From positions 62,001 through 126,000 of the IMG/VR virus record IMGVR_UViG_3300009103_000001: DNA of 64,000 bases. The stretch is one strand, 5' to 3'. The notes beneath the pieces are model-generated. The model saw nothing but the letters and a program-made list of their open reading frames with translations. It did not search any database and was not told where the DNA came from. The stretch's first letter is position 1; every line of letters starts with the position of its first letter. This stretch comes from a virus. The translations under genes and the position numbers were made by a program. Of the stretch, positions 42,290 through 55,800 are shown piece by piece.

Positions 42290-43018
42290 ATGAAAATATT
42301 AAAACCAGGAGATGAGGGATATGGTTATATCATTGAGTATGATGCCGGATTTATTTCACCATCATTAACATGTAAAGACGGTGTGTGTTCTAATTCTAAT
42401 TTGATTAAAGAATTTAAATCTGGTTTAAATTTCGGATTAGATGGGGAGTTACCAGATAAAATAGAATTATACGCTGTTCTTCAAAAATGGGGTGTGGAGA
42501 ATAAAAATGGTAGAGTATATACAGAAGAAATTTTAAAAAGAGAGGCAAAAAGATACCAAGAATTTATAGATATGGGTACATCACTCGGTGAATTGAATCA
42601 CCCAGAATCATCAATTATTGATGCTGACCGTGTATCACATAGAGTTACAGAAATATGGTGGGAAGGTAGAACATTAATGGGCAAAATCGAATTAGACACA
42701 ACACCAGGTTATTTAAGTGGTGGTGTGATTAGTTCTGTTGGTGATAAAGTTCTTAATATGATTAGAAAGGGATGGACTGTTGGCATATCTTCTAGAGGTG
42801 TCGGTTCGTTAAAACAAGAAGGTGGTAAAAATGTTGTTCAAGACGATTTCGAATTAATATGTTGGGATATTGTAACATCACCATCTACACCAGGTTCTTG
42901 GATATCGATAAGTCAACAAGATTTGACACCATATACAGAATCAGTTAAAAAAAATAATAATTTATTATCCGAAGAAGAACATACATTATTGAATAATTTA
43001 AATAAATTTTTATTATGA
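42290..43018 (+). CDS. Prohead maturation protease, T4 gp21-like
   Basis: 242 aa from the ATG at 42290. A TTG at 42209 in the same frame would run through the divergent promoter and is rejected. The family motifs are clear: GELNHPES (100-107, catalytic His104), ADRVSHRVTEIWWEGRTLMG, a GISSRGVGSL segment with the nucleophilic serine (about 167-168), and DFELICWDIVTSPSTPGS. The T4 enzyme cuts scaffold, capsid and internal proteins after (L/I)xE during head maturation. The stop codon overlaps the ATG of the first tagged gene (ATGA, 43015), coupling protease and cargo-like genes. Confidence 0.9.
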   Translation: MKILKPGDEGYGYIIEYDAGFISPSLTCKDGVCSNSNLIKEFKSGLNFGLDGELPDKIELYAVLQKWGVENKNGRVYTEEILKREAKRYQEFIDMGTSLGELNHPESSIIDADRVSHRVTEIWWEGRTLMGKIELDTTPGYLSGGVISSVGDKVLNMIRKGWTVGISSRGVGSLKQEGGKNVVQDDFELICWDIVTSPSTPGSWISISQQDLTPYTESVKKNNNLLSEEEHTLLNNLNKFLL

Positions 43019-43296
43019 AAAAAATAATTAAATTAAACGAAAACGATATAGGGAACTTGGTTAAGAAAATAATCAAGGAAGATAGAACTGATTTTGAAAA
43101 AGTTTATATAATAGTTAATAGAGAAATACACGGTTATGAGGCGGTAGAGAATGTATATAAGACGTTGGAAGATGCGGTAAAAGATGATGTATTTGACAGA
43201 TACGAACAAACGCCAGAAATACTAAACGACCCAAATGATGGGGGGTTATATGGTATGAGTGAAACATTTTATATATTACCTTATAAAGTAAATTAA
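43015..43296 (+). CDS. Class-A leader-tagged small protein
   Basis: 93 aa. It starts MKKIIKLNENDIGNLVKKII and then KE|DRTD: the long ('class A') leader found in seven proteins here. The payload of about 70 residues (VYIIVNREIHGYEAVENVYK...) has no recognised family and looks alpha/beta. The start overlaps the protease stop, the closest genetic link between protease and a tagged gene. It is expected to be packaged and trimmed after residue 22 (inference). Confidence 0.7.
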   Translation: MKKIIKLNENDIGNLVKKIIKEDRTDFEKVYIIVNREIHGYEAVENVYKTLEDAVKDDVFDRYEQTPEILNDPNDGGLYGMSETFYILPYKVN

Positions 43297-43313
43297 AAAT
43301 AATTTTTATTATA

Positions 43314-43634
43314 ATGAAAAGAATTGAAAAACAAAAGAGACGGTTAATTGAAGAAGCTAATAAAAGGGTTCTAAAGGAATCCGCTGAATTGACTGAATTA
43401 CACGATGATGTATTATACTTAACACCTGAATACCGTTTGACTGGTAATAGGGGTGAGGGTGTTCGTGTTTATGAAGAAATAATGGATACTGTTAATTCAT
43501 ATGGTATAGAACCATCTGATGAGGCTAAAGCTTTAATTAAAAGACTTGAATACGACCTTAGTGCTTTAGAGGGTTTCGATGAAAGAGTGGTAAAATTATA
43601 TGAATCTTTAAGTGGAATAAATATTAATGAATAA
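43314..43634 (+). CDS. Leader-tagged small protein (variant leader)
   Basis: 106 aa. The N-terminus RIEKQKRRLIEEANKRVLKE differs from class A but is basic and helical and ends with LKE|S at 20-22 after a further candidate IEE. The payload is helical and acidic (EVYEEI-like segments and DEAKALIKRLEYDLSALEGF). No domain is recognised. It lies 17 bases after the previous tagged gene, in the same unit. Confidence 0.65.
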   Translation: MKRIEKQKRRLIEEANKRVLKESAELTELHDDVLYLTPEYRLTGNRGEGVRVYEEIMDTVNSYGIEPSDEAKALIKRLEYDLSALEGFDERVVKLYESLSGININE

Positions 43635-43641
43635 AATAATT

Positions 43642-43980
43642 ATGAAAAAAATAATTAAATTAAACGAAAACGATATAGAAAATTTGGTTAAGAAAATAAT
43701 CAAGGAAGAGGGTGAAGAGTATAGAAGTAAAGACCCAGACCAATTGGATATGTTTGATGGCACAGTTAAAGATAGGGAATTAGAACAAGAATATAAAGAA
43801 TGGGAAGAAGAGGATGATAAAATGACAGATATATATAATGATATTTATGACACACTTGAACCGGTATTGAATAATATTCTTGATAAGTATGGAGAAGATT
43901 TTGATTTAATCGCCAATGATGACATGATTCAAAACATAGTAGAGGATTGGATGTATCCAGATGGAGGTGATGAAGATTAA
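43642..43980 (+). CDS. Class-A leader-tagged acidic protein
   Basis: 112 aa from the ATG at 43642; an in-frame ATG five codons upstream would overlap the previous gene and shift the leader. It starts MKKIIKLNENDIENLVKKII followed by KE|EGEE. The payload is highly acidic and helical (WEEEDDKMTDIYNDIYDTLE). The leader DNA is nearly identical to that of 43015 and 44011, while the payload DNA is unrelated. Confidence 0.65.
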   Translation: MKKIIKLNENDIENLVKKIIKEEGEEYRSKDPDQLDMFDGTVKDRELEQEYKEWEEEDDKMTDIYNDIYDTLEPVLNNILDKYGEDFDLIANDDMIQNIVEDWMYPDGGDED

Positions 43981-43989
43981 AAGGATAAT

Positions 43990-43999
43990 AATATTTATA
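43990..43999 (+). promoter_or_regulatory. Late-type promoter motif AATATTTATA
   Basis: The motif ends 11 bases before the ATG at 44011, inside the tagged gene cluster. Confidence 0.5.
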
Positions 44000-44010
44000 A
44001 TAAAATAATC

Positions 44011-45156
44011 ATGAAAAAAATAATTAAATTAAACGAAAACGATATAGAGAATTTAGTTAAAAAAATAATCAAGGAAGATAGGTTACAAGAATTAGATAAA
44101 TTAACTTATGATAGTGCAGCTGAAAAAGCTTCAGAAAGAGGTATACCCGCTTTATCTGATAGATTTAGAAAACATGGACAAGAACATGGTCTAGGAAAGG
44201 AAAAAGAACAATTCACTTTAGTGATTGACCATAGCAGTCTTGGAGAAAGGGAATATACTTATAAAGTTGAGTCTGTGGAGGAAATGGAAGATGGTAAAAC
44301 TTTAAAAATAAAATTAGTTGACATAGATAACCCACAAAATGTTCATACATATACAGGAAGTATTCGACTCACCAACCCAAACAAAAACAGTAGGTCACTT
44401 AAACGTGGGGATTATAAACTAATTTTATATTTTAGAGATAATTATTATACTTTAGCTAAAACAAGAAAAGATGCTAAAAATTTATTAAATATGTTAATTA
44501 AAAATATGGGTGGTAAACACATGTTCCACCCACTAAAAAATATAGACCCTAGAACTTTAACTCTTGGGTATTCAAATTTTGGTGAAAATATTAAAAGAAG
44601 AAAAACACTTAGTGAAGATAGAACTGATTATGAGATGAGTGGTGCTAGAAGTCGTAAAGACTATGTCTCTAATCCAAGAGAAAGAGATATTACTGGAATG
44701 TTCGGTAAATATTCTGAAGATGTACCACCAATGGTAATTAGATACATGAGAAAAAATCCTGAAGCTATTGTAAAAAGATTATATAAAATATATGGTGATA
44801 AAATATATGATTATATACCACAACAAGTAGATATGGATTTAGTTAGAAATAACCCGAATGATGCCGATTTAGGGGCACAAGTTAGAAGTCGTTTTAATTC
44901 TGAAAATATTAATGAATGTGGTGAAGGGGGTTATATGACAGAAGATGGTTGTGTTGATTATGTCGAGGAAAATAGAAGACCTAGAAGAATATCTGAATCA
45001 AACGGTAAAGGTTGTGCTGATACAGAAAAAGGTTGTATTAGAAAAAGAAAAAGTGGTTGGGTAATATTAAATAATAAAAAAGGTGGTGTTTGGAGAAAAT
45101 GTTCTAGTAGAAAAAACTGTGAAGAACAATTAGATGCATATCACGCAAATCAATAA
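44011..45156 (+). CDS. Class-A leader-tagged multi-module protein
   Basis: 381 aa. After the class-A leader (IIKE|D, 19-22) there are internal sites LSE|DRTDYE (200-202), INE|CGEGG (300-302) and ISE|SNGKG (327-329). The EDRTD after the 200 site repeats the sequence after the leader of 43015. The last module (330-381) is a small cysteine-rich domain, KGCADTEKGC...GGVWRKCSSRKNCEEQL, possibly disulfide- or metal-stabilised. The first module contains two beta-strand-rich stretches (FTLVIDHSSLGEREYTYKVE). It reads as a cleavable chain of at least three parts. Activities are unknown. Confidence 0.7.
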   Translation: MKKIIKLNENDIENLVKKIIKEDRLQELDKLTYDSAAEKASERGIPALSDRFRKHGQEHGLGKEKEQFTLVIDHSSLGEREYTYKVESVEEMEDGKTLKIKLVDIDNPQNVHTYTGSIRLTNPNKNSRSLKRGDYKLILYFRDNYYTLAKTRKDAKNLLNMLIKNMGGKHMFHPLKNIDPRTLTLGYSNFGENIKRRKTLSEDRTDYEMSGARSRKDYVSNPRERDITGMFGKYSEDVPPMVIRYMRKNPEAIVKRLYKIYGDKIYDYIPQQVDMDLVRNNPNDADLGAQVRSRFNSENINECGEGGYMTEDGCVDYVEENRRPRRISESNGKGCADTEKGCIRKRKSGWVILNNKKGGVWRKCSSRKNCEEQLDAYHANQ

Positions 45157-45158
45157 TC

Positions 45159-45464
45159 ATGAAAGTTAAAAATATGTTATACGCGGGTCTTGGTATGGGT
45201 ACAATGGTATCTAAGAAGACTTATGAAGCTTATGAAAATTTTGTAAAAAGTGGTAAGGAGTTGGACCCAACAGTAAGTTCTACTATTGATGATTTTTTTA
45301 GTGATTTGGAAAATCAAAAAAAAGAAGTTAGAAATAGAGTTGAGGAAATTTTTAGTTTAACAGCGGATAAATTAGGGTACATCAAATTAAATGAGTATGA
45401 AAATTTATTAAAAAGAATAAAAACTTTAGAAGCTGAGTTAGCACAAGAAAAAAATAAAAAATGA
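45159..45464 (+). CDS. Coiled-coil protein without leader
   Basis: 101 aa: a short hydrophobic N-terminus (MLYAGLGMGTMVSKKTYEAY) then a long helix (FFSDLENQKKEVRNRVEEIF, LLKRIKTLEAELAQEK), resembling phasin-like coiled coils. It lies 2 bases after the 44011 gene and overlaps the next gene by 4 bases (ATGA). It is the one untagged member of this run. Confidence 0.55.
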   Translation: MKVKNMLYAGLGMGTMVSKKTYEAYENFVKSGKELDPTVSSTIDDFFSDLENQKKEVRNRVEEIFSLTADKLGYIKLNEYENLLKRIKTLEAELAQEKNKK

Positions 45465-45805
45465 AAAAAAGAATTGTAAAACTAAACGAAAACGATATTG
45501 AAAGACTCGTTAATAGAATTATAAAAGAAGATGAAAAAGTATCATCTTCACAACTTAAACAAAAAATGAAACAAACTAGTATGGATACTGGTAGTTTAGG
45601 TTTAACACCAAAAGAAAGAGAAGTCTTTAGTACAGCAATAGATATGTTAAAAGATTTTTTCGCACAACAAGGAAATCAGGCAACAGGTAAAGCTTTAAGT
45701 TTATTTAATAGATTTAAGGATAGTTTAAAAGATGTTAAAGCTGAACCAATTAAATCACCAGAAGAGGAACAAAATACTGGTACAGATGAATTCGCGGACC
45801 AATAA
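45461..45805 (+). CDS. Class-A leader-tagged helical protein
   Basis: 114 aa. The leader KKRIVKLNENDIERLVNRII, then KE|DEKV, is a more diverged class-A leader. The payload is helical and amphipathic (KEREVFSTAIDMLKDFFAQQ), with an acidic C-terminus. Its stop overlaps the next ATG (TAATG). The function is unknown. Confidence 0.65.
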   Translation: MKKRIVKLNENDIERLVNRIIKEDEKVSSSQLKQKMKQTSMDTGSLGLTPKEREVFSTAIDMLKDFFAQQGNQATGKALSLFNRFKDSLKDVKAEPIKSPEEEQNTGTDEFADQ

Positions 45806-46296
45806 TGGGATTAATTCGTAAAATAATAAAAGAAGAACTTCTTAAGGAAGTTGGGGGATATGATGACCCAACTATAATGGCTCAACATTCTGGTGCAACA
45901 TTACGTTCACTAATAGAAGTATTGTCTGGTATGTTAGAGGCTATTAAAAGATTAGCTCAAAAAATATCAAAAGGCGGGTTAGATAAATTTAAAGGTAGAG
46001 ACGTATTATTTAATTTATCTGACATAATAAATGAAGGATTAAGATTAACAGGTTTATTAATAAAAGATTTCACAGAAGATGATATTATATTTGAAGGTAA
46101 AAAGTTTATTGAAAAAATGAATGAGTTTAAAAGAAAGATTAGACTTTTATCTAATCTTGGTTCAAGTTATACAGAAAAAGACTATAATGAGAAAATATTA
46201 GAATTGATATTTAAATTGGAACCGACAATAAACAGTTATGGTAATAGTTTAAATGATGTTAATAAAAGATTCATGGATAGGTTCGATATGATATAA
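45805..46296 (+). CDS. Class-B leader-tagged helical protein
   Basis: 163 aa. It starts GLIRKIIKEELLKEVGG, the short ('class B') leader also seen on the ECF sigma factor (LIKKILKEELLKEN), with IKE|E at 7-9. The payload is a bundle of helices (LRSLIEVLSGMLEAIKRLAQ, DIINEGLRLTGLLIKDF). No family is recognised. It is the last gene of the first tagged run, upstream of the scaffold and capsid genes. Confidence 0.65.
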   Translation: MGLIRKIIKEELLKEVGGYDDPTIMAQHSGATLRSLIEVLSGMLEAIKRLAQKISKGGLDKFKGRDVLFNLSDIINEGLRLTGLLIKDFTEDDIIFEGKKFIEKMNEFKRKIRLLSNLGSSYTEKDYNEKILELIFKLEPTINSYGNSLNDVNKRFMDRFDMI

Positions 46297-46376
46297 TAAT
46301 TTTAATTAACTATTCACAAATAAACATATATTAAATAAAATTGTATTAATAATTAATCAAAAAAAAGTTTTAAAAA

Positions 46377-46610
46377 ATGAGTGATATAATAGTAAAATAT
46401 TTTTTAGTAAAAGTAGAATTTGATTCTATAAATGAGAACACGGGAAAACCAAAGAAAATAAAAACACAATATCTTGTTGATGCAATGACTTGTACAGAAG
46501 CTGAAGCAAGAACAAACATTTATTTAAAAGAATCTGTGTTAGACTATGAGATTGTATCGGCAGTTAAAAGTCCAATAGAAGACGTTATAAGAGTAGCGGT
46601 TCCGGCTTAG
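46377..46610 (+). CDS. DUF4494-like protein
   Basis: 77 aa. The pattern KYFLVKVEFDSINENTGKPK...KTQYLVDAMTCTEAEARTNI followed by a beta hairpin (YEIVSAVKSP) fits a small family typical of Bacteroidetes and their phages that I know as DUF4494; the identification is by memory. The function is unknown. The gene stands alone between an 80-base gap and a strong terminator. Confidence 0.6.
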   Translation: MSDIIVKYFLVKVEFDSINENTGKPKKIKTQYLVDAMTCTEAEARTNIYLKESVLDYEIVSAVKSPIEDVIRVAVPA

Positions 46611-46634
46611 ATAAAAAAACAAAAATACTACTTT

Positions 46635-46672
46635 AACACGAAATGTCTAATTGATGTTTCGTGTTTTTTTAT
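46635..46672 (+). terminator. Rho-independent terminator
   Basis: AACACGAAA, loop, TTTCGTGTT, then a T run, ahead of the scaffold/capsid unit. Confidence 0.85.
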
Positions 46673-46753
46673 GCTTAAAAATTTTATTCTATAAAAAAAA
46701 TATAATTAAAATAAACTAAAATAAAGTTTTTTTAACTTTTTCCACATTTAATA

Positions 46754-46763
46754 CATATTTATT
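46754..46763 (+). promoter_or_regulatory. Late-type promoter motif CATATTTATT
   Basis: The motif lies 60 bases before the scaffold ATG (46824), giving a longer leader than elsewhere, as might suit a highly expressed capsid unit. Confidence 0.5.
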
Positions 46764-46823
46764 AGAAAACTCTAAGTGCTTTAGGGTTTTTTAATAATAT
46801 TATATAATAAAAAATAAAAAAAA

Positions 46824-48029
46824 ATGGCAGAGAACAGAAAGTCTATCATCGATGAGGCTCTCTTAGAAAGCGAACAAATTGAAAAAGCTTTCGAAGCTAA
46901 TGCAAAAGAAATACTGACTCAAACTATGAGTTCAGAAATTGAAGAAATGGTAAAGGAATCTTTAGAAGGTTCAAGTAGCTTAACAGAAGACGAAGATGAA
47001 GAAATGTTAGATTTACCTGATATGGGTGATGATGACGAAGATGCCGTCGCTGTTGCTGGTGACGTAGAAGACCTAGAAGACATGGGAATGGAACTAGGCG
47101 ACCTTGAAGGTCTAGAAGACCTTGAAGGGGATGATAACGAAGGACTTGATATCGAAATGATTGATTTGACAGACGCTGACGACACTGAAGTTGTTAGAGT
47201 TTTCAAAAAAATGGGACCAGACGATGAAATCGAAGTGGTTCAAGATGGTGGAAATATTGATATTAAGGATAATGAAACTGGCGCAGAATATAGAGTAGAA
47301 CTTGGTGGTGAAGGTGAAGACCTTGAAGACCTTGAAGGTGATGAAATTGAAATGGAAGACTTAGAAGACGTAGACGTTGAAGGTGATGAAATTGAAATGG
47401 AAGACCTAGAAGGTGATGACACTGAAGGTGAAGAAATTATTTATCAAGTAGAACTTGATGATGAAGATGACACCGTTGAAGAAGCTAGCAGAACATTAGG
47501 TAAGGGAAGTAAAAACTACCCTAAACGTAAAGGTTTACCAAAACCTATAGCTAGTGGAGCTAAGAATGAGTCAATAAAACCAAAGTTCTTAAAAATGATG
47601 AATGAAAATAAAGTTCTAAAAACTGATATCGAAAAAGTTGAATCTGAAAATAAAGAGTTAAAAGAAGACTATAATAAAATGGTTGACGCTCTTAAACAGT
47701 TCAGACAAAAACTTAATGAGGTTGCTGTGTTTAACAGTAACTTAACTTATACAGTTAGATTATTTACCGAACACTCAACTACTAAAGATGAGAAAGTTGA
47801 TGTAATCAAGAGATTTGATGAAGCTAAAACTCTTAAAGAATCTAAAGCTACTTATAAAAATTTAGTTAAAGAAATATCTAAGACAAAGGCTCCAATTAAA
47901 GAATCTATTGAGGAAAAAATTAACGAAACAAAATCTAGTGGTTCAGCACAGGTAACTGAATCTAAAGTTTATGTACACCCAGAGTTAGAAAAAATGAAAA
48001 ACTTATGGGAATATGAGTACAAAAACTAA
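46824..48029 (+). CDS. Prohead core scaffold, T4 gp22-like
   Basis: 401 aa, directly upstream of the major capsid gene as gene 22 is in T4. It has a helical N-terminus, an extremely acidic middle (about 55-225) with EDLEGDEIEMEDLE-type repeats, and a helical C-terminal half containing FNSNLTYTVRLFTEHSTTKD, a segment typical of scaffolds in T4-like marine phages. It has several (I/L)xE sites (LNE|V, LKE|S, IKE|S, INE|T) for degradation during maturation. Codon use differs from its neighbours: more GAC and CTT, as expected for high expression. Confidence 0.85.
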   Translation: MAENRKSIIDEALLESEQIEKAFEANAKEILTQTMSSEIEEMVKESLEGSSSLTEDEDEEMLDLPDMGDDDEDAVAVAGDVEDLEDMGMELGDLEGLEDLEGDDNEGLDIEMIDLTDADDTEVVRVFKKMGPDDEIEVVQDGGNIDIKDNETGAEYRVELGGEGEDLEDLEGDEIEMEDLEDVDVEGDEIEMEDLEGDDTEGEEIIYQVELDDEDDTVEEASRTLGKGSKNYPKRKGLPKPIASGAKNESIKPKFLKMMNENKVLKTDIEKVESENKELKEDYNKMVDALKQFRQKLNEVAVFNSNLTYTVRLFTEHSTTKDEKVDVIKRFDEAKTLKESKATYKNLVKEISKTKAPIKESIEEKINETKSSGSAQVTESKVYVHPELEKMKNLWEYEYKN

Positions 48030-48064
48030 TAATAATAAAATTAAATTAAAAAACCAAAATTAAA

Positions 48065-49888
48065 ATGGGATATTTATTAAAATCTGGTGAGGTTGGAAAT
48101 ATCGGACTTAAGCATCAAAAAGCTATCCGTGAAGCAACCGTAAACAAGTGGAATGACCTAGGATTTCTTGAAGGTTTAGATGGGCATGTTAAAGAAAACA
48201 TCGCTCTTCTTTACGAGAACCAAGCGTCAACACTTATTAATGAGACAACAGATACGGCTGGTGGAGCATCAACTGGTTCTTTTGAAACAGTAGTTTTTCC
48301 AATCGTAAGGCGTGTTTTCTCAAAATTGTTAGCAAACGACATCGTTTCTGTTCAAGCATTAAATTTACCAATAGGTAAACTTTTCTATTTCGTACCAAAA
48401 GTATCGGATAGAGTTGAGAGTACATCTCCATCTTTTGCTGGTGGAGCATCTGGTGCTACTGCATCACATGGAGCACCAATAATCTGTCACTGTAACACAA
48501 CAGACTGTAATCCTACGACTTACTCTGAATGTGCTAAAAATATGTATGATAGATTTTATGATGACGGAATGTGGGACCAATCAAAAGGTCAAATAATGTT
48601 ACACGTTGATAACGGTACTATGGTAGTGTTTACTGCTTGTACTGACGCAACACTTGGTGTTCCTCATGAATTCATTGGTGGTGTTACTGCACAAGCTGGT
48701 GACGGTTCTGTTAGAAGTCAAATTGTACAAATTTGTAACTTTAGTACAGCTGGAGCTGGTAGACTTTTAGGTCCTGATGGAAATGAAATGGATACTGAAT
48801 CTTTCTTAGCATCAATTGCTGTTACACCTACTGGTACTTTAGTTGATAAAGATGGTTTAACAATTGCTGAGGCTGGTGACCAATTACCAGTTAGAGTTGT
48901 TACACAAAAATATGGTAGAGGTATCGTTTCTTATGGTGATATTTGTGACGCTGAAGGATGTATATTCTTAGAAGTTGATTTAACTCACCCAGTATGTGTA
49001 GAATGTGGTGATGGTACTTTCGATGGTTATATCGGAGCAGCATCTGGAACAACAGCTATTGTATCTGGTGTAGGTTCTAGTGACTTAGGAGGTGTAAACC
49101 TAGCAGTTACTTGGAGGTCTTACCAAGACCTTGAAGAAGAGTGTGAAATGGGAGAAGTATCTTTCGAACTTGATTCTGTTACAGTATCGGTTACTGAAAG
49201 AAAATTAAGAGCTACTTGGACTCCTGAATTAGCACAAGATGTGTCAGCGTTCCATAACATTGATGCAGAAGCTGAATTAACAGCATTACTTTCTGAACAA
49301 GTTGCAGCAGAAATCGACAGGGAAATCCTTAGAGATTTAAGAACTGGGGCGGCTTGGACATTAAGATGGGATTATAACGGATGGAAAAGGTTACCAAATA
49401 ACAACGGTTACACTCAAAAAGATTGGAACCAAACGTTGATTACAGCGGTTAACCAAATTTCAGCTCAAATCCATAAGTCTACTCTTAGGGGTGGTGCTAA
49501 CTTCGTAGTTGTATCTTCTGAGGTATCAGCCATTATGGATGACCTTGAATACTTCCACGTATCTAACGCAGCTCCAGAACAAGACCAATACAATATGGGT
49601 ATTGAAAGAGCTGGTTCTCTTGGTGGACGTTACACTGTATACCGTGACCCTTACGCTCCAGCACACTCGGTGTTAGTTGGACACAAAGGTAAATCACTAT
49701 TGGATACTGGGTATATTTACGCTCCGTATGTACCATTACAGTTAACTCCAACAATGTACAATCCATTTAACTTTGTACCTATCAAAGGTATAATGACGCG
49801 TTACGCGAAAAAGATGGTTAATAACAGGTTCTACGGACATATCCGTGTGGACGGTTTACGTACATTTGATGTTAGAGAATTGAGATAA
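48065..49888 (+). CDS. Major capsid protein, T4 gp23-like
   Basis: 607 aa, 35 bases after the scaffold gene and before a terminator. The N-terminal propeptide (GLKHQKAIREATVNKWNDLG, GFLEGLDGHVKENIALLYEN) ends at INE|TTDTAGG, cut after E60, close to the T4 gp23 cut after E65. Next is the conserved VVFPIVRRVFSKLLANDIVS and VQALNLPIGKLFYF, and later the C-terminal MYNPFNFVPIKGIMTRYAKK. An inserted region at about 120-360 carries several cysteines (CHCNTTDC). It forms the head shell. Coding sequence is GC-richer at third positions than in most neighbours. Confidence 0.95.
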   Translation: MGYLLKSGEVGNIGLKHQKAIREATVNKWNDLGFLEGLDGHVKENIALLYENQASTLINETTDTAGGASTGSFETVVFPIVRRVFSKLLANDIVSVQALNLPIGKLFYFVPKVSDRVESTSPSFAGGASGATASHGAPIICHCNTTDCNPTTYSECAKNMYDRFYDDGMWDQSKGQIMLHVDNGTMVVFTACTDATLGVPHEFIGGVTAQAGDGSVRSQIVQICNFSTAGAGRLLGPDGNEMDTESFLASIAVTPTGTLVDKDGLTIAEAGDQLPVRVVTQKYGRGIVSYGDICDAEGCIFLEVDLTHPVCVECGDGTFDGYIGAASGTTAIVSGVGSSDLGGVNLAVTWRSYQDLEEECEMGEVSFELDSVTVSVTERKLRATWTPELAQDVSAFHNIDAEAELTALLSEQVAAEIDREILRDLRTGAAWTLRWDYNGWKRLPNNNGYTQKDWNQTLITAVNQISAQIHKSTLRGGANFVVVSSEVSAIMDDLEYFHVSNAAPEQDQYNMGIERAGSLGGRYTVYRDPYAPAHSVLVGHKGKSLLDTGYIYAPYVPLQLTPTMYNPFNFVPIKGIMTRYAKKMVNNRFYGHIRVDGLRTFDVRELR

Positions 49889-49910
49889 GAATCTTAATAT
49901 ATAACAAACT

Positions 49911-49938
49911 AAAGGAGGAACATATGTTCCTCCTTTTT
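49911..49938 (+). terminator. Rho-independent terminator after the capsid gene
   Basis: AAAGGAGGAACA, loop TA, TGTTCCTCCTTT, then a T run: a 12-pair perfect stem. The AGGAGG here is part of the hairpin, not a ribosome site. Confidence 0.9.
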
Positions 49939-49950
49939 TTATGCACTAAA

Positions 49951-49960
49951 CTATTTATAA
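49951..49960 (+). promoter_or_regulatory. Late-type promoter motif CTATTTATAA
   Basis: The motif lies 12 bases before the ATG at 49973, between terminator and gene. Confidence 0.4.
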
Positions 49961-49972
49961 TAAAACAATAAA

Positions 49973-50140
49973 ATGCCGTATAAAGTAAAAGGTAAATGTG
50001 TTTATAATGCCAATACTGATGAGAAAGTAGGTTGTACTAAGGGTTCAGTCAAAAAATATCTTGCCGCATTAAATGCTAATGTGGATGAAAATATTATTAA
50101 AAAAGTTGTACAGGAAACCTTTAAAAGGGTTGGCATTTAA
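49973..50140 (+). CDS. Small conserved-type phage protein
   Basis: 55 aa: MPYKVKGKCVYNANTDEKVG, then CTKGSVKKYLAALNAN and a basic helical end. The start pattern (PYKVKG..V....) is seen in small phage proteins of unknown function. It has its own promoter motif after the capsid terminator. There is no leader, although residues 39-47 form a helix with IIKKVVQE. Confidence 0.55.
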   Translation: MPYKVKGKCVYNANTDEKVGCTKGSVKKYLAALNANVDENIIKKVVQETFKRVGI

Positions 50141-50142
50141 TT

Positions 50143-50283
50143 TTATAAAAATAAAATACGTGAAACAGTTTTTTTTATTTTTTTCTTGATACGTATTCTT
50201 CTTATACGTGAAACTCTATTTTCAATTTCGAATAACTTACTTATGTTATCGTTAATTTCTATTATTTCTTTTCTTTTTTTCAT
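50143..50283 (-). CDS. Small basic hypothetical protein
   Basis: 46 aa, ATG at 50281-50283, stop at 50143-50145. The sequence is very basic (RVSRIRRIRIKKKIKKTVSR). It is convergent with the 49973 gene. There is no promoter motif of either class on this strand, and the only support is the open frame and its composition, so it may be spurious. Confidence 0.3.
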   Translation of the reverse strand: MKKRKEIIEINDNISKLFEIENRVSRIRRIRIKKKIKKTVSRILFL

Positions 50284-50346
50284 AATGCATTAAGTATTAA
50301 ATATCAAATAATTCTCAAAAGTATCAAAAATTTAATAATAAAACAA

Positions 50347-50356
50347 GATATTTATA
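50347..50356 (+). promoter_or_regulatory. Late-type promoter motif GATATTTATA
   Basis: The motif ends 12 bases before the ATG at 50369, the start of the second tagged run. Confidence 0.55.
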
Positions 50357-50368
50357 AAAAAGATTTTA

Positions 50369-50803
50369 ATGAAAATTAAAAAAATCATAAAAACTATTTT
50401 GGAATCAGAATTTGACTGGGTTAAAGATTCTGTTTTACATTTTTGGGATATGAATAAAAAATATGTTGTGGATGTTTCAAAGTTAGAAAGATACCCACCA
50501 ATGAGTCTTTCACCAACTTCTGATAGGTATACAGATATATTTATATCAGATATTATAGATTATGGTAAAGAAATAGGGTATGATATAACGGATTTAGGTA
50601 GTACAGCTGATATACAACAACGAGTGCAAGGTTCTTATACCGTTCCTCATGATGTATGTTATATATATTTTAATCCAAACAAATTTGTAGAGTGGGATAT
50701 GTGTGGTATAGACGACCCAACTTGGGATGGTGAATATGAGTTAATGGATGCGGAGAGTTTTATTTATTATATGGAGAATAATTTTATTAAGAATGAACAT
50801 TAA
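50369..50803 (+). CDS. Leader-tagged DFDW-type protein
   Basis: 144 aa. The leader MKIKKIIKTILESEFDWVKD has ILE|S at 10-12 followed by the EFDWVKD module motif. The payload (residues 13-144) is acidic and aromatic with YTDIFISDIIDYGKEIGYD and a C-terminal helix. No domain is recognised. It overlaps the next gene by 11 bases. Confidence 0.65.
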   Translation: MKIKKIIKTILESEFDWVKDSVLHFWDMNKKYVVDVSKLERYPPMSLSPTSDRYTDIFISDIIDYGKEIGYDITDLGSTADIQQRVQGSYTVPHDVCYIYFNPNKFVEWDMCGIDDPTWDGEYELMDAESFIYYMENNFIKNEH

Positions 50804-51842
50804 AAAAATTATAAGAGAAGAGTTGGACGATTTTGATTGGGCTAGGGATGATATCTACTTTTCAATAGACTATATTCTAGGTAAACAGATGTATTTTAGG
50901 CATAGTAATATAAATGAACTTGAAAGAGAATATAAAGCTTATAACAATGACAGAATACAACAAATACCAAAAAATAAAATAGTCTTAGGTAATATTAAGT
51001 GGACTAGTATGTTTACGGCAAATTATGTTAAAAATAATATAGCACACATCTATTTACAAGACAGCACTAGTTTACAATATTCAGTGGATATGGTTGAATT
51101 TTATGTAAATAGTGGTATATGGGCTTTAGAGGATGATAATGGTAATATTATTAATGATTTCTCTGGCCAATATTTAAAAGAATCAGAGTTGGATTGGATT
51201 CAAAAATCTGAACCAGATAGAAAAGATATTAGAAGTTTCAATAAAGAAAGGTATAAAACCACTCTTAATTATAATAATGCTGAAATAGGGGATAAATTTA
51301 TCCCACCTGGTAGTCATATGGTATGGACCGTTGATGATAAAGAATTTTGGCGTGGCAAATGGGGTAATGACGAAAATGGAGACCCTGAATATTATAGATA
51401 TTTTATTATATGGATAAAAAATGAGAGGGGTGACCTCAAAAGAAAGTATTATAATAAAACGAATAAATTATTTCCAGGTACTTATAGACCTTGGAGAAAA
51501 ATAGTTGACTCTAATATTAATGAATCGAAAGAGTTTGATTGGGCAAAAGAAATTAAACCTGAAATGACTGCTGAAGCTGTACCACTATATTATAATAAAC
51601 CTCTTTTTTGGTATCATCGGGGTGAACCTAGGCAATGTTGGGGGATGCCTACCATTTATTGGTTATCAAAAAGTTATGTCACTGAAAGGGGTGAAAATAT
51701 ATCTTTATTATGTTATGATGACGGATGTGATGTAGAATCAAAAATTGAATGTAGTGCATTTTATGACTATACAATTGCTAATATGTTTAATGAGGGGACA
51801 CTTAGATTTCAATCACAGTTAAGTGATATTGAACCAACTTAA
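50793..51842 (+). CDS. Leader-tagged three-module protein
   Basis: 349 aa from the ATG at 50793. The frame is open further upstream but the extension (IIWRIILL) is an out-of-frame reading of the previous gene. The leader MNIKKIIREELDDFDWARDD has IRE|E at 7-9. Two internal sites, LKE|SELDWIQ (128-130) and INE|SKEFDWAKE (242-244), each begin a new module with the same (D/E)-x-DW motif. Module 2 has a PPGSHMVWTVDD beta-barrel-like segment. It is the clearest small example of the cleavable chain design seen at 4725. Confidence 0.7.
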   Translation: MNIKKIIREELDDFDWARDDIYFSIDYILGKQMYFRHSNINELEREYKAYNNDRIQQIPKNKIVLGNIKWTSMFTANYVKNNIAHIYLQDSTSLQYSVDMVEFYVNSGIWALEDDNGNIINDFSGQYLKESELDWIQKSEPDRKDIRSFNKERYKTTLNYNNAEIGDKFIPPGSHMVWTVDDKEFWRGKWGNDENGDPEYYRYFIIWIKNERGDLKRKYYNKTNKLFPGTYRPWRKIVDSNINESKEFDWAKEIKPEMTAEAVPLYYNKPLFWYHRGEPRQCWGMPTIYWLSKSYVTERGENISLLCYDDGCDVESKIECSAFYDYTIANMFNEGTLRFQSQLSDIEPT

Positions 51843-52205
51843 AAAACGTTTCCAGAGTGGTTTAGTTTTACCATATGATGTTTCGTATAAGGGAACCCAT
51901 TGTTCACCATTCCATGTAACTAAATGACCACTATCTTCATCAAATTTAACTCTGCCTTGATAATTAGGTAATTCAGCACTACCGGTTACAGTTAAATTAG
52001 ATATAGTAGTTTGTAGGTCATTTACTGTAATAGCCATACCACCATCGTTACCATTAATAAAAAGAGTGTTAGTTTGGTTAGGTTCCTCGAAGGGAATTTG
52101 AATTTGGCCGTTTTCAATAAAACCTCTTTGTCTAAGTGAAGTACCTATCACAACTTTAGCTTTACCACTTTTAAAATCGTGTTTTGCTATTATTTTTTTA
52201 AACAT
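51819..52205 (-). CDS. Probable tail or head decoration protein
   Basis: 128 aa, beta-rich: IENGQIQIPFEEPNQTNTLF, GGMAITVNDLQTTISNLTVT, then KFDEDSGHLVTWNGEQWVPL, a pattern frequent at the tips of fibre and decoration proteins. It is convergent with the tagged 50793 gene, overlapping by 24 bases. A bidirectional terminator separates it from the gene upstream. No family can be named. Confidence 0.55.
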   Translation of the reverse strand: MFKKIIAKHDFKSGKAKVVIGTSLRQRGFIENGQIQIPFEEPNQTNTLFINGNDGGMAITVNDLQTTISNLTVTGSAELPNYQGRVKFDEDSGHLVTWNGEQWVPLYETSYGKTKPLWKRFLSWFNIT

Positions 52206-52225
52206 ATATTAATTATAATGATAGC

Positions 52226-52256
52226 AAAAAAAAAGGGAAGATTACTTCCCTTTTTT
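52226..52256. terminator. Bidirectional terminator
   Basis: AAAAAAAAGGGAAG, loop, CTTCCCTTTTTT. It has a run of A on one side and T on the other, so it can end transcription in either direction; it follows the small gene ending at 52242. Confidence 0.8.
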
Positions 52257-52421
52257 ATAAACATCTAAATAAGATACCCCATATTTTCTGAGTTTCTCAC
52301 CCAAAGTGGCGTCATGAGGGTTTTCCTTGATTTCTTTAATAAAATGTTCTATAACATCCGAATAAAGTAAAACCAGTTCGTCTATATTAGATGTCGACCT
52401 TATTTTTTCTTTAAACGTCAT
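52242..52421 (-). CDS. Small hypothetical protein coupled to a YGxxTxWC gene
   Basis: 59 aa, ATG at 52419-52421 overlapping the stop of the upstream gene (ATGA), stop at 52242-52244. The sequence is helical (LVLLYSDVIEHFIKEIKENP, then DATLGEKLRKYGVSYLDVYK). It is part of the same minus-strand unit as the 53158 gene. The coupling supports it as real; the function is unknown. Confidence 0.65.
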   Translation of the reverse strand: MTFKEKIRSTSNIDELVLLYSDVIEHFIKEIKENPHDATLGEKLRKYGVSYLDVYKKGK

Positions 52422-53158
52422 TCTCTTATGCCTTTATTTTTAGCTACAACCATATTAGGTTCACCTTTTTCCATTTTTTCAGTTATGATATCCATAATTT
52501 CTGGTTTTACCATTCTATATACTTTTAGGGTATCAGTAACATTGAATTGTTTATCTTGAACATCCCAAATAGTCATACCATCTTTCTTATTTTTATCATT
52601 GTGGAAAGCCATTTTTGAGAAAACATTAGTTCTACAATCTTTATCTTTAACGGTTTTGTCTATTAAGAAAACTAAAACACCATTTTCAGTATATTGTTTG
52701 AAATAACGCCCATAGTTGTGGTCCTCACTTGATACACACCATTTTGTAGCTTTACCATACATGTTTGAACTACGTGTGGTAAGTGGTAAAATAACGACCC
52801 ATCTATCATCTTCATAAAGAACTTCTGTTTCCTTATTTTTAACTTCAGAACGAGTAATTTTTTCTTTGGCGAATTTAACAGCCTCTATAATGTCTTGGTT
52901 TGACTCATAAGAATATATGTCTTTATTTTCCAAAAGATTTCTTTCAGATAAATCTTCAAAATCTTTTATAACTTCAAACATTTCTTTAAAGGTTTCATTA
53001 TTAAGCTCATTATGAATCCAATCAACCCAATCCTTAGTTTGTTTAATCATGAAAGGTAAATATTTATTAGACTTTGTAGGGTCATTTTCAGATAAAACTT
53101 CTATTACATCAATAGAGTAAGTTGGGTGTTGTGCTTTAAGGTCTCTTTTTTTCGCCAT
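52418..53158 (-). CDS. YGxxTxWC-family protein without leader
   Basis: 246 aa. It aligns with the middle of the 1391 protein: YLPFMIKQTKDWVDWI near the start, DDRWVVILPLTTRSSNMYGK (115-134), ATKWCVSSEDH with the WC at 140-141, and YFKQYTENGVLVFLIDKTVK. Unlike the two tagged copies it begins MAKKRDLKAQHPTY, with no (I/L)xE leader, and it is driven by a host-type promoter. It is therefore probably made in the infected cell early, while the tagged relatives arrive with the virion. The function is unknown. Confidence 0.75.
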   Translation of the reverse strand: MAKKRDLKAQHPTYSIDVIEVLSENDPTKSNKYLPFMIKQTKDWVDWIHNELNNETFKEMFEVIKDFEDLSERNLLENKDIYSYESNQDIIEAVKFAKEKITRSEVKNKETEVLYEDDRWVVILPLTTRSSNMYGKATKWCVSSEDHNYGRYFKQYTENGVLVFLIDKTVKDKDCRTNVFSKMAFHNDKNKKDGMTIWDVQDKQFNVTDTLKVYRMVKPEIMDIITEKMEKGEPNMVVAKNKGIRE

Positions 53159-53191
53159 TTGTATTATTTTTTTTTAGGTTTAAAACTTTAA

Positions 53192-53222
53192 CAAAGATAA
53201 TAATTTTTTTTAAACTATCAAA
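53192..53222 (-). promoter_or_regulatory. Bacteroidetes-type promoter for the 53158 operon
   Basis: Read on the minus strand: TTTG at 53222-53219, 19 bases, TATCTTTG at 53199-53192; the ATG follows 34 bases later. Confidence 0.75.
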
Positions 53223-53261
53223 CTATTTTATATTTTTTTTCGATTTTTCTCTAATTATTTT

Positions 53262-53284
53262 CCATATTGCTTAAGACAATATGG
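53262..53284. promoter_or_regulatory. Perfect inverted repeat in the divergent intergenic region
   Basis: CCATATTG, 7-base spacer, CAATATGG. It lies between the divergent host-type promoter and the late-type motif and has no T run, so it may be an operator rather than a terminator. Confidence 0.35.
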
Positions 53285-53332
53285 TTAATTACTTTATTCT
53301 TCAAATATAGACCAATTTTTTTAATTTAACAA

Positions 53333-53342
53333 GATATTTATT
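53333..53342 (+). promoter_or_regulatory. Late-type promoter motif GATATTTATT
   Basis: The motif ends 17 bases before the ATG at 53360. Confidence 0.55.
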
Positions 53343-53359
53343 AAAAAAGATAATTTAAC

Positions 53360-53764
53360 ATGAAAAAGAAAGTAATTAAATTAAACGAAAACGATATAGA
53401 AAATTTGGTTAAGAAAATAATCAAAGAAGAAGATAAGGAAAAAGTGACAACTTTAACCAGACATCCAGCTTATCCAATTATAGATGAATTGGAAATGACT
53501 TTGGATGAGTTAAAAACAAAATTTAAAAGAGATATCGCAAATAGTGTTTCTGGAGCAGATGGATATCATAGTGAGATAGATACATTCGTGTCAAATTTTA
53601 ATAAATTTATTGGGAAAGTTTCTGATTTGAAAAGTAAGATAAATGACCATCAAATAGCGTCAAAAAAGAAACAAGAGTCAAACGCTCAAATGCAAGAAAG
53701 AAAAAGAGCTCATTGGGATAGAAAAGAAAAAGCTAGAAATGAGGGTAGTAAATACTCATATTAA
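53360..53764 (+). CDS. Class-A leader-tagged helical protein
   Basis: 134 aa. The leader MKKKVIKLNENDIENLVKKI, then IKE|EDKE, has DNA almost identical to the copies 10 kb away (43642 gene). The payload is a long charged helix with basic and Q/E-rich ends (KSKINDHQIASKKKQESNAQ, RKRAHWDRKEKARNEG). It could bind DNA or RNA by charge, but no family is recognised. It ends inside the upstream part of the next frame. Confidence 0.65.
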   Translation: MKKKVIKLNENDIENLVKKIIKEEDKEKVTTLTRHPAYPIIDELEMTLDELKTKFKRDIANSVSGADGYHSEIDTFVSNFNKFIGKVSDLKSKINDHQIASKKKQESNAQMQERKRAHWDRKEKARNEGSKYSY

Positions 53765-53777
53765 AGACGTTAAATCT

Positions 53778-54113
53778 GTGAAAAAGAAAATAATCAAATT
53801 AAACGAAAGTGATATTCAACGTATTGTTAAAAGAATAATAAGTGAAAATAGTGGAATGGATTTTTACTTAGAAGAACTTGGGGAGTTTGCCAATAACTTA
53901 GAATGGAATGATATATATGATGATGATGAGGACCTTAGAGATTATGATGTACATCAAGTAGAGGAAATAATACAACAAGCCAATGATGACGAATCCCTAA
54001 GTGATAATGAGTGGGATATCATTAGTGAATTTGGGCAAGCTATAATTAATAAGTTAACTGGCGAAAGTGGTGAAGAGGATTATCCGACAGACCAGAGAGA
54101 GTATTGGTCATAA
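53778..54113 (+). CDS. Class-A leader-tagged acidic protein, GTG start
   Basis: 111 aa when started at the GTG at 53778, which gives exactly the leader KKKIIKLNESDIQRIVKRII followed by SE|NSG (ISE cut site). An in-frame ATG at 53739 would add 13 residues, overlap the previous gene and bury the leader. The payload is very acidic (DIYDDDEDLRDYDVHQVEEI). The function is unknown. Confidence 0.65.
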   Translation: MKKKIIKLNESDIQRIVKRIISENSGMDFYLEELGEFANNLEWNDIYDDDEDLRDYDVHQVEEIIQQANDDESLSDNEWDIISEFGQAIINKLTGESGEEDYPTDQREYWS

Positions 54114-54134
54114 CCTTTATATATATAAACACAT

Positions 54135-54431
54135 ATGAAAAAGAAAATAATCAAATTAAACGAAAAGGATATCGAAAGATTGGTAGAAAAAATCATTAAA
54201 GAAGAAAATGATATGTTAATGGGTGAAGACTCAGAAGGTGAAGAAACCTATAATTATGACCAAGATTTACATCATGATTCTGAAGAATTACATGATTTAG
54301 AACATAAACATGGTAGTAAAAGACATATCCGTAATTTAAAAAAGGATATGGATTATGATGAAAAAAGAGGTGTAGGTAAAAATGATAAGTGGAGAAGAGA
54401 AAGAGGTACCCACTTTAATAGAAGAAGTTAG
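54135..54431 (+). CDS. Class-A leader-tagged charged protein
   Basis: 98 aa. The leader KKKIIKLNEKDIERLVEKII, then KE|ENDM. The payload is histidine- and acid-rich in the middle (YDQDLHHDSEELHDLEHKH) and basic at the end (KNDKWRRERGTHFNRRS). The stop TAG overlaps a GTG start of the next gene by one base. It is possibly metal- or nucleic-acid-binding by composition only. Confidence 0.65.
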   Translation: MKKKIIKLNEKDIERLVEKIIKEENDMLMGEDSEGEETYNYDQDLHHDSEELHDLEHKHGSKRHIRNLKKDMDYDEKRGVGKNDKWRRERGTHFNRRS

Positions 54432-54616
54432 TGAATAGACAAGATAAAATACAAAACATACTTAAAGCCAATAAAAGGTTATTAAAAGAAGACCATGAAA
54501 GTACCGATAAAGGTAAGATTGATTATATAAAAGGTGCTTTAGAAAATTTATCATCTGAGGATTTGGATAAGATTTATTTGTCAGTTGAAGAGTATGACCC
54601 AGAATATGAAAAATGA
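54431..54616 (+). CDS. Leader-tagged mini-protein, GTG start
   Basis: 61 aa, GTG at 54431 overlapping the previous stop (TAGTG). The N-terminus MNRQDKIQNILKANKRLLKE ends in LKE|D at 18-20, leaving a payload of only 41 residues, acidic and helical (IDYIKGALENLSSEDLDKIY). It overlaps the following gene by 4 bases (ATGA). Confidence 0.6.
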   Translation: MNRQDKIQNILKANKRLLKEDHESTDKGKIDYIKGALENLSSEDLDKIYLSVEEYDPEYEK

Positions 54617-55800
54617 GAAGGTTTGATAAAAATAAAAATATATTAGAAGCCAACTTAAGATTAGAAAGAGAATTTATTACCAGTAAATCTCTTTTATTAA
54701 GCACTACAACAAGTAATACATTTATTGAATCTTGTTTAAATAGCCAATATTTTAACGAAGATGAAAAATCTTTTATACTAGAAACAGTATTACCAAATCA
54801 AAAATTAATACAAGAAGGTGGTTGGGATTGGATTAAAGATAATATAATAGAACCCACAAAAAATGCCATAAAAAAAGGTGTAGATAAAGCAAAATCTTTT
54901 TACACTAAAATAAAAGAACTTATTTCTAATATTGGTAAATTTTTAAAAGAAATATGGTCATATATTATAAAGTTTGGTGAATGGTTGTGGGATAAGGTTT
55001 TTGGTATAGTTAAAAATAAAATTAATAAAAATAAAGCTAAGATTGAAAAAAAGTTAGAGGAATTTAAAAATTTACCACCACAAGAAAGAGACACAGAAAT
55101 AGAACAGTTAATCCAAACTGGAGAATTTTGGAAGGATAAGTCTGGTATTAGCACTATTTTAGGTACTTTTAATAGTGATGTTGAGGGCTCAATAAATAAA
55201 ATGAATTCTGGTAGTGAAGCTATAATGGAATATTGGTCACCTGAAGTTATAGACTTTTTTGGTAAAAGTAAAAAAATTCTAAAAGAAGGTAGTAGTAAAG
55301 CAATGAAAGTAGTGGAGTGGGTTGTTCAGGCTGTTAGTTGGGTTATAAAAATACCTCAAAAAGCTTTAGAATGGATTTTTAGTAAAGCGGCCCAAGGTAT
55401 ATTAATACTTTCTAGTATTGCAACTGAAAAGTTTGGTGGTCCTGGTCCATTCAAATTCCCAAATTTAAGTCATCTTATTGGAGCAACTTTACTTACTATA
55501 GCTGAGTCAATAGTTTTTTCACACACAGTTTTTCATACACATTTTAAAGGTAATTTTATTACAGATGTGATTGTAGGTTGGGAACATATCATGGAAGAGG
55601 TTTTAGGAAAAATCGCTGGTAGTTTTGTTAAACCACTTGTTGCAATCATATCGGGTATTGGTATTGTTTTAGGTATAATGGAGATGATTTTTGCTATTCA
55701 ACACATAAGAAAAGAAAAAGACTTATCACAATACGATAAAAAAGATTTAAATCAAGATGGTAAGGGTGATAGTTTCGATGAAAAATTAGCTACTAGTTAA
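54613..55800 (+). CDS. Leader-tagged protein with hydrophobic C-terminal helices
   Basis: 395 aa. The leader MRRFDKNKNILEANLRLERE resembles that of the preceding gene. Further sites are IQE|GGWDWIKDN (66-68, with the DW motif) and LKE|GSSK. After a charged helical middle, the C-terminal 170 residues contain several long hydrophobic stretches: VVEWVVQAVSWVIKIPQKAL, AAQGILILSSIA, LIGATLLTIAESIVF, and FVKPLVAIISGIGIVLGIME. If packaged, it could insert in the host membrane during DNA entry (inference). It ends back to back with a convergent tail gene. Confidence 0.65.
   Translation: MRRFDKNKNILEANLRLEREFITSKSLLLSTTTSNTFIESCLNSQYFNEDEKSFILETVLPNQKLIQEGGWDWIKDNIIEPTKNAIKKGVDKAKSFYTKIKELISNIGKFLKEIWSYIIKFGEWLWDKVFGIVKNKINKNKAKIEKKLEEFKNLPPQERDTEIEQLIQTGEFWKDKSGISTILGTFNSDVEGSINKMNSGSEAIMEYWSPEVIDFFGKSKKILKEGSSKAMKVVEWVVQAVSWVIKIPQKALEWIFSKAAQGILILSSIATEKFGGPGPFKFPNLSHLIGATLLTIAESIVFSHTVFHTHFKGNFITDVIVGWEHIMEEVLGKIAGSFVKPLVAIISGIGIVLGIMEMIFAIQHIRKEKDLSQYDKKDLNQDGKGDSFDEKLATS

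What the first reader, a model, noticed from the sequence alone, without database searches (positions are those of the whole stretch)
42290..55800. A modular virion cargo system: shared N-terminal leaders ending in a prohead-protease site
Seen: about twenty otherwise unrelated proteins start with one of two leader types. Class A (core KLNENDIxxLVxxIIKE) is on the genes starting at 43015, 43642, 44011, 45461, 53360, 53778 and 54135. Class B (LIKKILKE-like) is on 313, 3727, 22511, 27758(-), 45805, 50369, 50793 and, in variant form, 1391, 8390(-), 27138(-), 28915, 43314, 54431 and 54613. All end in (I/L)xE. Known: in T4 the gp21 protease removes capsid-targeting N-termini from internal proteins after (L/I)xE. 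The gp21-like gene here is translationally coupled (ATGA) to the first tagged gene, and tagged genes flank scaffold and capsid genes. Inference: these proteins are packed in the head, trimmed and injected. The scale and sequence uniformity of the leader go well beyond T4's few internal proteins.
Basis: partly seen in the sequence, partly recalled or inferred. Interest (0 to 1): 0.93.

Follow-up and report, generated by a model that had tools for sequence, protein, structure and literature searches.

The report
Phage cargo tags and cleavable polyproteins
This uncultured T4-like virus of bacteria puts a few interchangeable short tags on about fifty unrelated proteins, and strings some of them together between copies of the cut site its capsid protease is expected to use, which suggests a large stock of proteins loaded into the virus head, trimmed there and probably injected into the host.

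Summary
The window is part of a 210-kb T4-like phage contig with an S77 (gp21-type) prohead protease and a Gp23 capsid protein. At least 40 of 281 ORFs carry an N-terminal leader ending in (I/L)xE. Leader patterns match 44 of 820 start-like residues near ORF starts and 0 of 1439 later ones.

Five new tests support trimming by the head protease.
1. Homologous cargos carry different leader classes, and homology resumes at the predicted cut (LLKE|VGGYDD, IITE|VGGYDD); sigma-factor and HPAYP cargos swap too.
2. About 80 internal junctions of the form (L/I)NE|S...DFDW separate modules in multidomain ORFs, and module homology ends cluster there.
3. The capsid protein's predicted maturation site is (I/L)(N/T/S)E|(T/S/A) in 37 of 37 relatives.
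4. Mature tagged proteins avoid [IL]xE (0.74 relative to untagged ORFs).
5. Leader-bearing contigs usually carry S77 (18/21 versus 8/19 controls), and the class A leader is almost absent from 85,462 bacterial and archaeal genomes.

Packaging and trimming are therefore well supported by sequence. Injection is inferred, and no virion proteomics exists. Novel beyond T4: scale, interchangeable leaders, cleavable cargo polyproteins, a tagged ECF sigma factor.

The parts
42290..43018 (+). S77 (T4 gp21-type) prohead protease; predicted triad H104, S168, D193
   Evidence: PF03420 4e-25, PHROG 207 1e-41; aligned to T4 gp21 5JBL 2.9e-16; residues located
43015..43296 (+). Class A leader (43015-43080, ends IIKE) plus cargo; overlaps the protease stop codon as ATGA
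43314..43634 (+). Class D leader cargo (MKRIEKQKRRLIEEANKRVLKE)
43642..43980 (+). Class A leader cargo
44011..45156 (+). Class A leader plus a multi-module body; candidate internal sites LSE (44608-44616), INE (44908-44916), ISE (44989-44997)
   Evidence: The EMSGARS module is stand-alone behind a leader in L018, L020 and L021; site coordinates
45461..45805 (+). Class A leader cargo
45805..46296 (+). Class B leader (ends LLKE at 45849) on the GGYDD..MA.HAG cargo; homologs carry class A or class C-like leaders
   Evidence: leader swap at the cut site
46824..48029 (+). Probable scaffold (gp22 position, very acidic); assigned by position only
   Evidence: no family match; lies between the protease and the capsid gene
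48065..49888 (+). Gp23-type major capsid protein; predicted maturation site INE|T at 48236-48244 (after residue 60)
   Evidence: PF07068 4.6e-71; site (I/L)(N/T/S)E|(T/S/A) in 37 of 37 relatives
50369..50803 (+). Class B leader plus KKYVVDVS..SPTS module; the similar module is internal in polyproteins of L188, L189 and L190
   Evidence: read from the sequences
50793..51842 (+). Class B leader plus three-module polyprotein; sites LKE (51174-51182) and INE (51516-51524)
53360..53764 (+). Class A leader on the HPAYP cargo; homologs in L020 and L223 carry class D instead
53778..54113 (+). Class A leader cargo (ends IISE)
54135..54431 (+). Class A leader cargo
54431..54616 (+). Class D leader cargo
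54613..55800 (+). Class D leader cargo, 395 aa
313..861 (+). Class B leader cargo with a TNWCTA motif (PHROG 28193 / 17056)
1391..2839 (+). Loose class B variant leader; weak PcfJ-like match
   Evidence: below Pfam cut-off
3727..4728 (+). Class B leader cargo with DFDW motif
4725..6785 (+). Polyprotein without a basic leader (686 aa); sites LNE (5145-5153), LFE (5448-5456), LSE (5754-5762); last module has an invariant HExxH
   Evidence: relatives L188, L189, L190
22511..23050 (+). Class B leader on an ECF sigma factor
   Evidence: Sigma70_r2 7e-14, r4_2 5e-13; PDB ECF sigma matches; homolog L170_8466 has a class C leader
27174..27758 (-). Class B leader cargo with DFDW motif
26809..27138 (-). 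Class C leader cargo
7365..8390 (-). Class C leader on a protein with an OmpA domain
   Evidence: OmpA PF00691 9.7e-8

Best explanation
This T4-like phage has a large capsid-cargo programme. Interchangeable N-terminal leaders (a short amphipathic basic helix ending in (I/L)xE; [quoted passage not shown] Many cargos are also joined into polyproteins in which the targeting helix is absent and only the cut site remains between modules ((L/I)NE|S, followed by a DFDWVKD-like motif), so one leader could carry several proteins that are separated inside the head. The mature proteins are probably co-packaged with DNA and delivered at infection. Supported here by sequence: the leaders, their interchangeability at the cut, internal sites at module borders, the matching capsid site, avoidance of the site in mature bodies, and association with S77. 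Inferred: physical packaging, cleavage and injection.
For: S77 protease and Gp23 capsid in the locus. Leaders at gene starts only; 414 tagged proteins fall in 231 unrelated clusters. Leader swaps: GGYDD cargo with B (LLKE|VGGYDD), A (IITE|, IINE|VGGYDD) and diverged leaders; HPAYP cargo A versus D; sigma factor B versus C. Internal junctions: 17 versus 1.1 expected in shuffles of this genome; 80 of 101 internal FDW cores across loci have an upstream site, P2 mostly N, P1' S in 63 of 80; homology ends lie within 10 aa of a junction in 148 of 363 cases versus 42 expected, maximum 56 in 200. Capsid site has the same form, and the related giant-phage protease gp245 also prefers Ser at P1' (PMC10052503). 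[IL]xE is avoided in tagged bodies: ratio 0.74 (bootstrap 0.68-0.80); E is the most depleted of 17 [IL].X, and M.E, I.E, L.E the most depleted of 19 X.E; seen in each class and in polyprotein modules. Co-occurrence with S77: 18 of 21, and the other 3 lack Gp23 too, versus 8 of 19 controls. Class A leader in at least 352 viral stretches versus 3 in cellular genomes.
Against: No virion proteomics exists; no cultured relative of the cargos was found in 50,697 phage records, and Flavobacterium phage immuto, with a related head, lacks A and B leaders. Two control contigs (G035, G039) have leader A-like genes but no recognised S77, S78 or PHROG 207 protease. Several cargos in relatives resemble endolysins or peptidoglycan-binding proteins. 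[IL]xE avoidance is strong for class A and weaker for B and C. Leader and junction patterns were defined after seeing the data, and ORFs were called mechanically.
Confidence: 0.85

Rival explanations
1. The leaders are capsid-targeting and cleaved, but internal junctions are uncut linkers: the multidomain ORFs stay whole as polyvalent-type proteins, and (L/I)NES is a relic of gene fusion.
For: Multidomain injected proteins that stay whole are known (N4 virion RNA polymerase, conjugative ArdC and TraC1 in PMC5512222). Fusion of adjacent tagged genes would leave such junctions; L187 keeps a leader-like NIIREELDDFDW internally.
Against: The basic helix is generally lost at internal junctions while (I/L)xE|S is kept. 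The junction consensus matches the capsid site, and modules alternate between stand-alone tagged and internal forms.
Confidence: 0.2
2. The leader is a docking helix for another phage structure (replication compartment, membrane or tail assembly), and (I/L)xE is simply part of the helix.
For: Amphipathic basic helices are generic, and some cargos look lysin-like.
Against: Leader swaps break at the predicted bond, mature bodies avoid exactly [ILM]xE, tagged genes flank the head genes, and the leader tracks with S77. Hsp70, terminase, portal, sheath, Clp ATPase and GDP-mannose dehydratase genes lack leaders.
Confidence: 0.08
3. The shared N-termini come from DNA-level processes (repeats or recombination hotspots) without protein function.
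For: Tandem paralogs with near-identical leaders exist (L197).
Against: Synonymous differences exceed non-synonymous ones (84 versus 67); about 190 class A proteins come from diverse phages, with conservation in frame and at start codons.
Confidence: 0.01

Closest known systems
T4 internal head proteins (IPI, IPII, IPIII, Alt) with a capsid-targeting sequence (CTS) cut by gp21
   Same: Conserved short N-terminal leader on otherwise diverse proteins, S77 protease, Gp23 capsid; T-even internal proteins are described as highly diverse with only a conserved CTS (PMC3012670; PMC9958956). Known from general knowledge: gp21 cuts after (L/I)xE.
   Different: Dozens of cargos instead of a few; four interchangeable leader classes; cargo polyproteins with internal cut sites; a retained DFDW motif after the cut; no sequence match to T4 internal proteins was seen.
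phiKZ and SPN3US ejection proteins cut by S80 protease gp175 / gp245
   Same: Many head proteins, propeptides removed after AxE with Ser preferred at P1' (PMC10052503; PMC5694885).
   Different: Few substrates (nine), long individual propeptides, no shared portable leader; all gp245 sites reported there remove N-terminal propeptides, apart from its own C-terminal self-cleavage.
Polyvalent proteins of phages and conjugative elements (Iyer et al. 2017)
   Same: Multidomain invasion proteins with shuffled domains; an HExxH module recurs here.
   Different: There, processing is attributed to embedded zincin-like peptidases (PMC5512222); here the module borders carry capsid-protease-type sites. The fold of the HExxH module was not recognised.

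Membership tests
Peptidase family S77 (T4 gp21) | Profile match and catalytic His/Ser/Asp | tested here: met
   PF03420 4e-25; alignment to 5JBL, with Ser and Asp aligned and His104 at the position where the 5JBL chain has Ala
T4-type CTS internal head proteins | Shared N-terminal leader on unrelated proteins ending in the protease site | tested here: met
T4-type CTS internal head proteins | Same cut-site specificity as the capsid protein's maturation site | tested here: met
   predicted sites only
T4-type CTS internal head proteins | Sequence homology to T4 internal proteins or their CTS | not tested
   no direct comparison was run; Pfam and PHROG scans gave no such match
T4-type CTS internal head proteins | Protein present in the virion with the leader removed | not testable with these tools
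   needs virion mass spectrometry
T4-type CTS internal head proteins | Delivery into the host cell | not testable with these tools
   needs a translocation assay
Polyvalent proteins (Iyer 2017) | Several unrelated domains in one polypeptide, shuffled between elements | tested here: met
Polyvalent proteins (Iyer 2017) | Zincin-like peptidase domain | tested here: inconclusive
   Invariant HExxH but no Pfam match and no fold match (model pLDDT 64)

The most novel reading that the evidence does not exclude
The phage packs polyproteins: a head-targeted precursor carries up to about eight different effector modules (L190, 1253 aa) separated by capsid-protease sites, and the prohead protease cuts it into separate proteins inside the capsid before DNA entry. 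Modules move between stand-alone tagged genes and polyproteins, and the cargo includes an ECF sigma factor that could reprogram the host RNA polymerase from the first moment of infection.
Probability: 0.6. Interest if true: 0.92.

Novelty: new variant of a known kind. Interest (0 to 1): 0.83.

Why it matters
If true, the leader and junction rules are a sequence-only predictor of head-packaged, probably injected, proteins. In the loci fetched here alone they name 414 tagged proteins in 231 unrelated clusters, almost all of unknown function. Cargo polyproteins cut by a capsid protease would be a new way for tailed phages to deliver many proteins at once, and portable natural leaders could be useful for loading proteins into phage heads. 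A head-packaged sigma factor would make the timing of early transcription takeover directly testable.

Tried and rejected
Short-peptide tblastn of class A leaders against cultured phages found nothing, or only a chance hit inside a Synechococcus phage protein at E = 2; masking of low-complexity sequence may contribute. Flavobacterium phage immuto was tested as a possible source of virion proteomics but has no A or B leaders, and no paper reporting its virion proteome was found. Fold search of the HExxH module gave no match. The three-module model was confident only for residues 20-122, so it supports the leader and first junction lying outside a compact domain but no more. Literature searches found no description of these leaders or of cargo polyproteins cut by a prohead protease; subscription papers and preprints are not in that library. 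A DNA-repeat origin was rejected on codon differences. S78-type protease was sought in leader contigs lacking S77 and not found.
Full report
WHAT IS THERE. The window is C1:62001-126000 of a 210,157-bp virus record. The finding's region holds an S77 prohead protease (42290-43018; PF03420 4e-25, PHROG 207 1e-41, T4 gp21 structure 5JBL 2.9e-16) and a Gp23-type capsid gene (48065-49888; 4.6e-71). Upstream lie a T4-type terminase (33595) and a gp20 portal (35698; PF07230 4.8e-74). So this is a T4-like head module. The protease stop overlaps the first tagged gene as ATGA.

THE LEADERS ARE REAL AND MORE NUMEROUS THAN REPORTED. Strict patterns find 40 tagged ORFs among 281 (7 A, 27 B, 4 C, 2 D), and about ten more are evident by eye. 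Patterns match at 44 of 820 start-like residues in the first 60 aa of ORFs and at none of 1439 later ones. In relatives the counts are 868 of 18,111 versus 6 of 33,320 (start codons and Met residues partly counted twice in both arms). Class A occurs seven times, all in the finding's region; class B dominates elsewhere and continues into a second motif, D-F-D-W-V-K-D. Class A codons vary synonymously (84 synonymous versus 67 non-synonymous differences), so selection acts on the peptide.

LEADER SWAPS BREAK AT THE PREDICTED CUT. The cargo at window 45805 (GGYDD..MA.HAG) has homologs with class B leaders (LLKE|VGGYDD), class A leaders (IITE|VGGYDD in L030, IINE|VGGYDD in L035) and diverged leaders (IIEQ|AAGYDD in L139, IAEA|VSGYDD in L170); homology begins immediately after the site. 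The HPAYP cargo (window 53360) has class A here and class D in L020 and L223. The ECF sigma factor at window 22511 (class B) has a homolog with a class C leader in L170. The four leader classes therefore appear equivalent. The 414 tagged proteins from all loci fall into 231 clusters of unrelated bodies.

INTERNAL SITES: CARGO POLYPROTEINS. The junction motif recurs inside ORFs: 17 internal matches in this genome against 1.1 in shuffles (maximum 6 of 200). Over all loci, 101 internal FDW cores were found and 80 have (I/L/V/M)xE within 8 residues upstream; aligned on E, the consensus is (L/I)-N-E|S-D-(D/E)-(F/L)-D-W-(I/V), with Ser at P1' in 63 of 80. Window 4725-6785 has three such sites and window 50793-51842 has two. 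Relatives L188, L189 and L190 are 947, 921 and 1253 aa ORFs made of about six to eight modules separated this way. The KKYVVDVS module is stand-alone and tagged at window 50369 but internal in those three (read); the stand-alone gene at C1:48816 matches internal modules of C1:42173 and C1:44058. The EMSGARS module follows LSE|D inside window 44011 but follows a leader in L018, L020 and L021. Ends of homology blocks fall within 10 aa of a junction in 148 of 363 cases, against 42 expected (maximum 56 of 200). Internal junctions keep the cut site but generally not the basic helix, which separates 'targeting' from 'cutting' by natural variation.

THE SITE MATCHES THE CAPSID'S OWN. The predicted maturation site of the capsid protein is (I/L)(N/T/S)E|(T/S/A) at about residue 60 in 37 of 37 relatives, in the same place as T4 gp23's cut after residue 65 (general knowledge). 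The S80 relative gp245 of SPN3US also prefers Ser at P1' (PMC10052503).

AN INDEPENDENT FOOTPRINT OF THE PROTEASE. Proteins that sit beside an active protease should avoid its site. The bodies of 385 tagged proteins (leader removed, junction-bearing ones left out) have [IL]xE at 0.91 of expectation, against 1.23 in 1786 untagged ORFs from the same contigs; the ratio is 0.74 (bootstrap 95% 0.68-0.80). Of 17 [IL].X motifs E is the most depleted, and of 19 X.E motifs M.E, I.E and L.E are the three most depleted. Class A is at 0.76, B 1.01, C 0.97, polyprotein modules 0.93, one-per-cluster 0.90; [VF].E is not depleted. Differences in helix content could contribute, but [IL].K, [IL].Q and [IL].R show no such effect.

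DISTRIBUTION. A class A profile finds at least 352 stretches in viral contigs (limit reached) and 3 in 85,462 bacterial and archaeal genomes. Two of the three are short contigs of one MAG that also holds an S77 gene on another contig, so probably binned phage DNA; the third lies near the end of a Bacteroidales contig beside chromosomal genes. Of 21 large contigs found by the leader, 18 carry S77, and the other three lack Gp23 as well, so they look like fragments; of 19 large contigs found by thymidylate synthase, 8 carry S77. Two of those 19 (G035, G039) have weaker leader A-like genes and no recognised protease: an open exception.

CARGO. Most bodies have no family. In this phage the best is the ECF sigma factor (Sigma70_r2 7e-14, r4_2 5e-13). 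A second sigma-like gene at C1:28305 is untagged. Cargos in relatives include peptidoglycan-binding and lysozyme-like proteins, an M23 peptidase, a CCA-adding-enzyme-like protein, an SprT-like protein and a sigma factor. Untagged controls include Hsp70, terminase, portal, sheath, Clp ATPase and GDP-mannose dehydratase.

MECHANISM. Most likely the leaders bind the scaffold core, carry cargo into the prohead, and the protease removes them and cuts polyproteins into modules before DNA entry; delivery follows at infection. The first steps parallel the T4 CTS system. Packaging, cutting and injection have not been measured for this phage group. The DFDW motif remains on the mature N-terminus; it may be prime-side recognition or a second sorting signal, and I cannot tell which.

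VERDICT. What goes beyond known systems is the scale, the interchangeable leaders and, above all, cargo polyproteins carrying capsid-protease sites.

Noticed in passing
window 22511-23050 (+) and C1:28305-28907 (outside the window): Two sigma-like genes: one leader-tagged ECF sigma, one untagged and weaker. A possible injected-early versus made-in-cell pair.
   Followed up: partly
window 7365-8390 (-): Class C leader on a protein with an OmpA domain; just after the leader there is a hydrophobic, signal-peptide-like stretch (WALAGLIALASM).
   Followed up: no
window 313-861, 1391-2839, 52418-53158(-): PcfJ-like / TNWCTA-motif proteins, two tagged and one untagged next to the capsid genes.
   Followed up: no
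window 5763-6782; C1:19554-21026; L188-L190: C-terminal module with an invariant HExxH (NHEMKHAW) and no Pfam or PDB fold match; possibly a new zincin-like peptidase.
   Followed up: partly
L197:2165-5612: Tandem array of five near-identical class B cargo paralogs (IDNFDWVN..ETPLSWLI).
   Followed up: no
window 42290-43018 (C-terminus): The protease itself has LLSE|E about 15 residues from its end, a candidate self-cleavage site of the kind reported for SPN3US gp245.
   Followed up: no
L182, L184 (MAG contigs): LTESDLHRIVKESV-type leaders next to class B-like leaders on short contigs of a MAG that also holds an S77 protease: likely phage DNA binned into a bacterial genome.
   Followed up: partly
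L304, L305 (records G035, G039): Phages with leader A-like and C-like genes but no recognised S77 or S78 protease and only partial Gp23 matches.
   Followed up: partly
C1:126-146 kb (outside the window): Long run of glycosyltransferase, epimerase and dehydratase-like genes on the minus strand, none tagged (only the GDP-mannose dehydratase was confirmed by Pfam).
   Followed up: no
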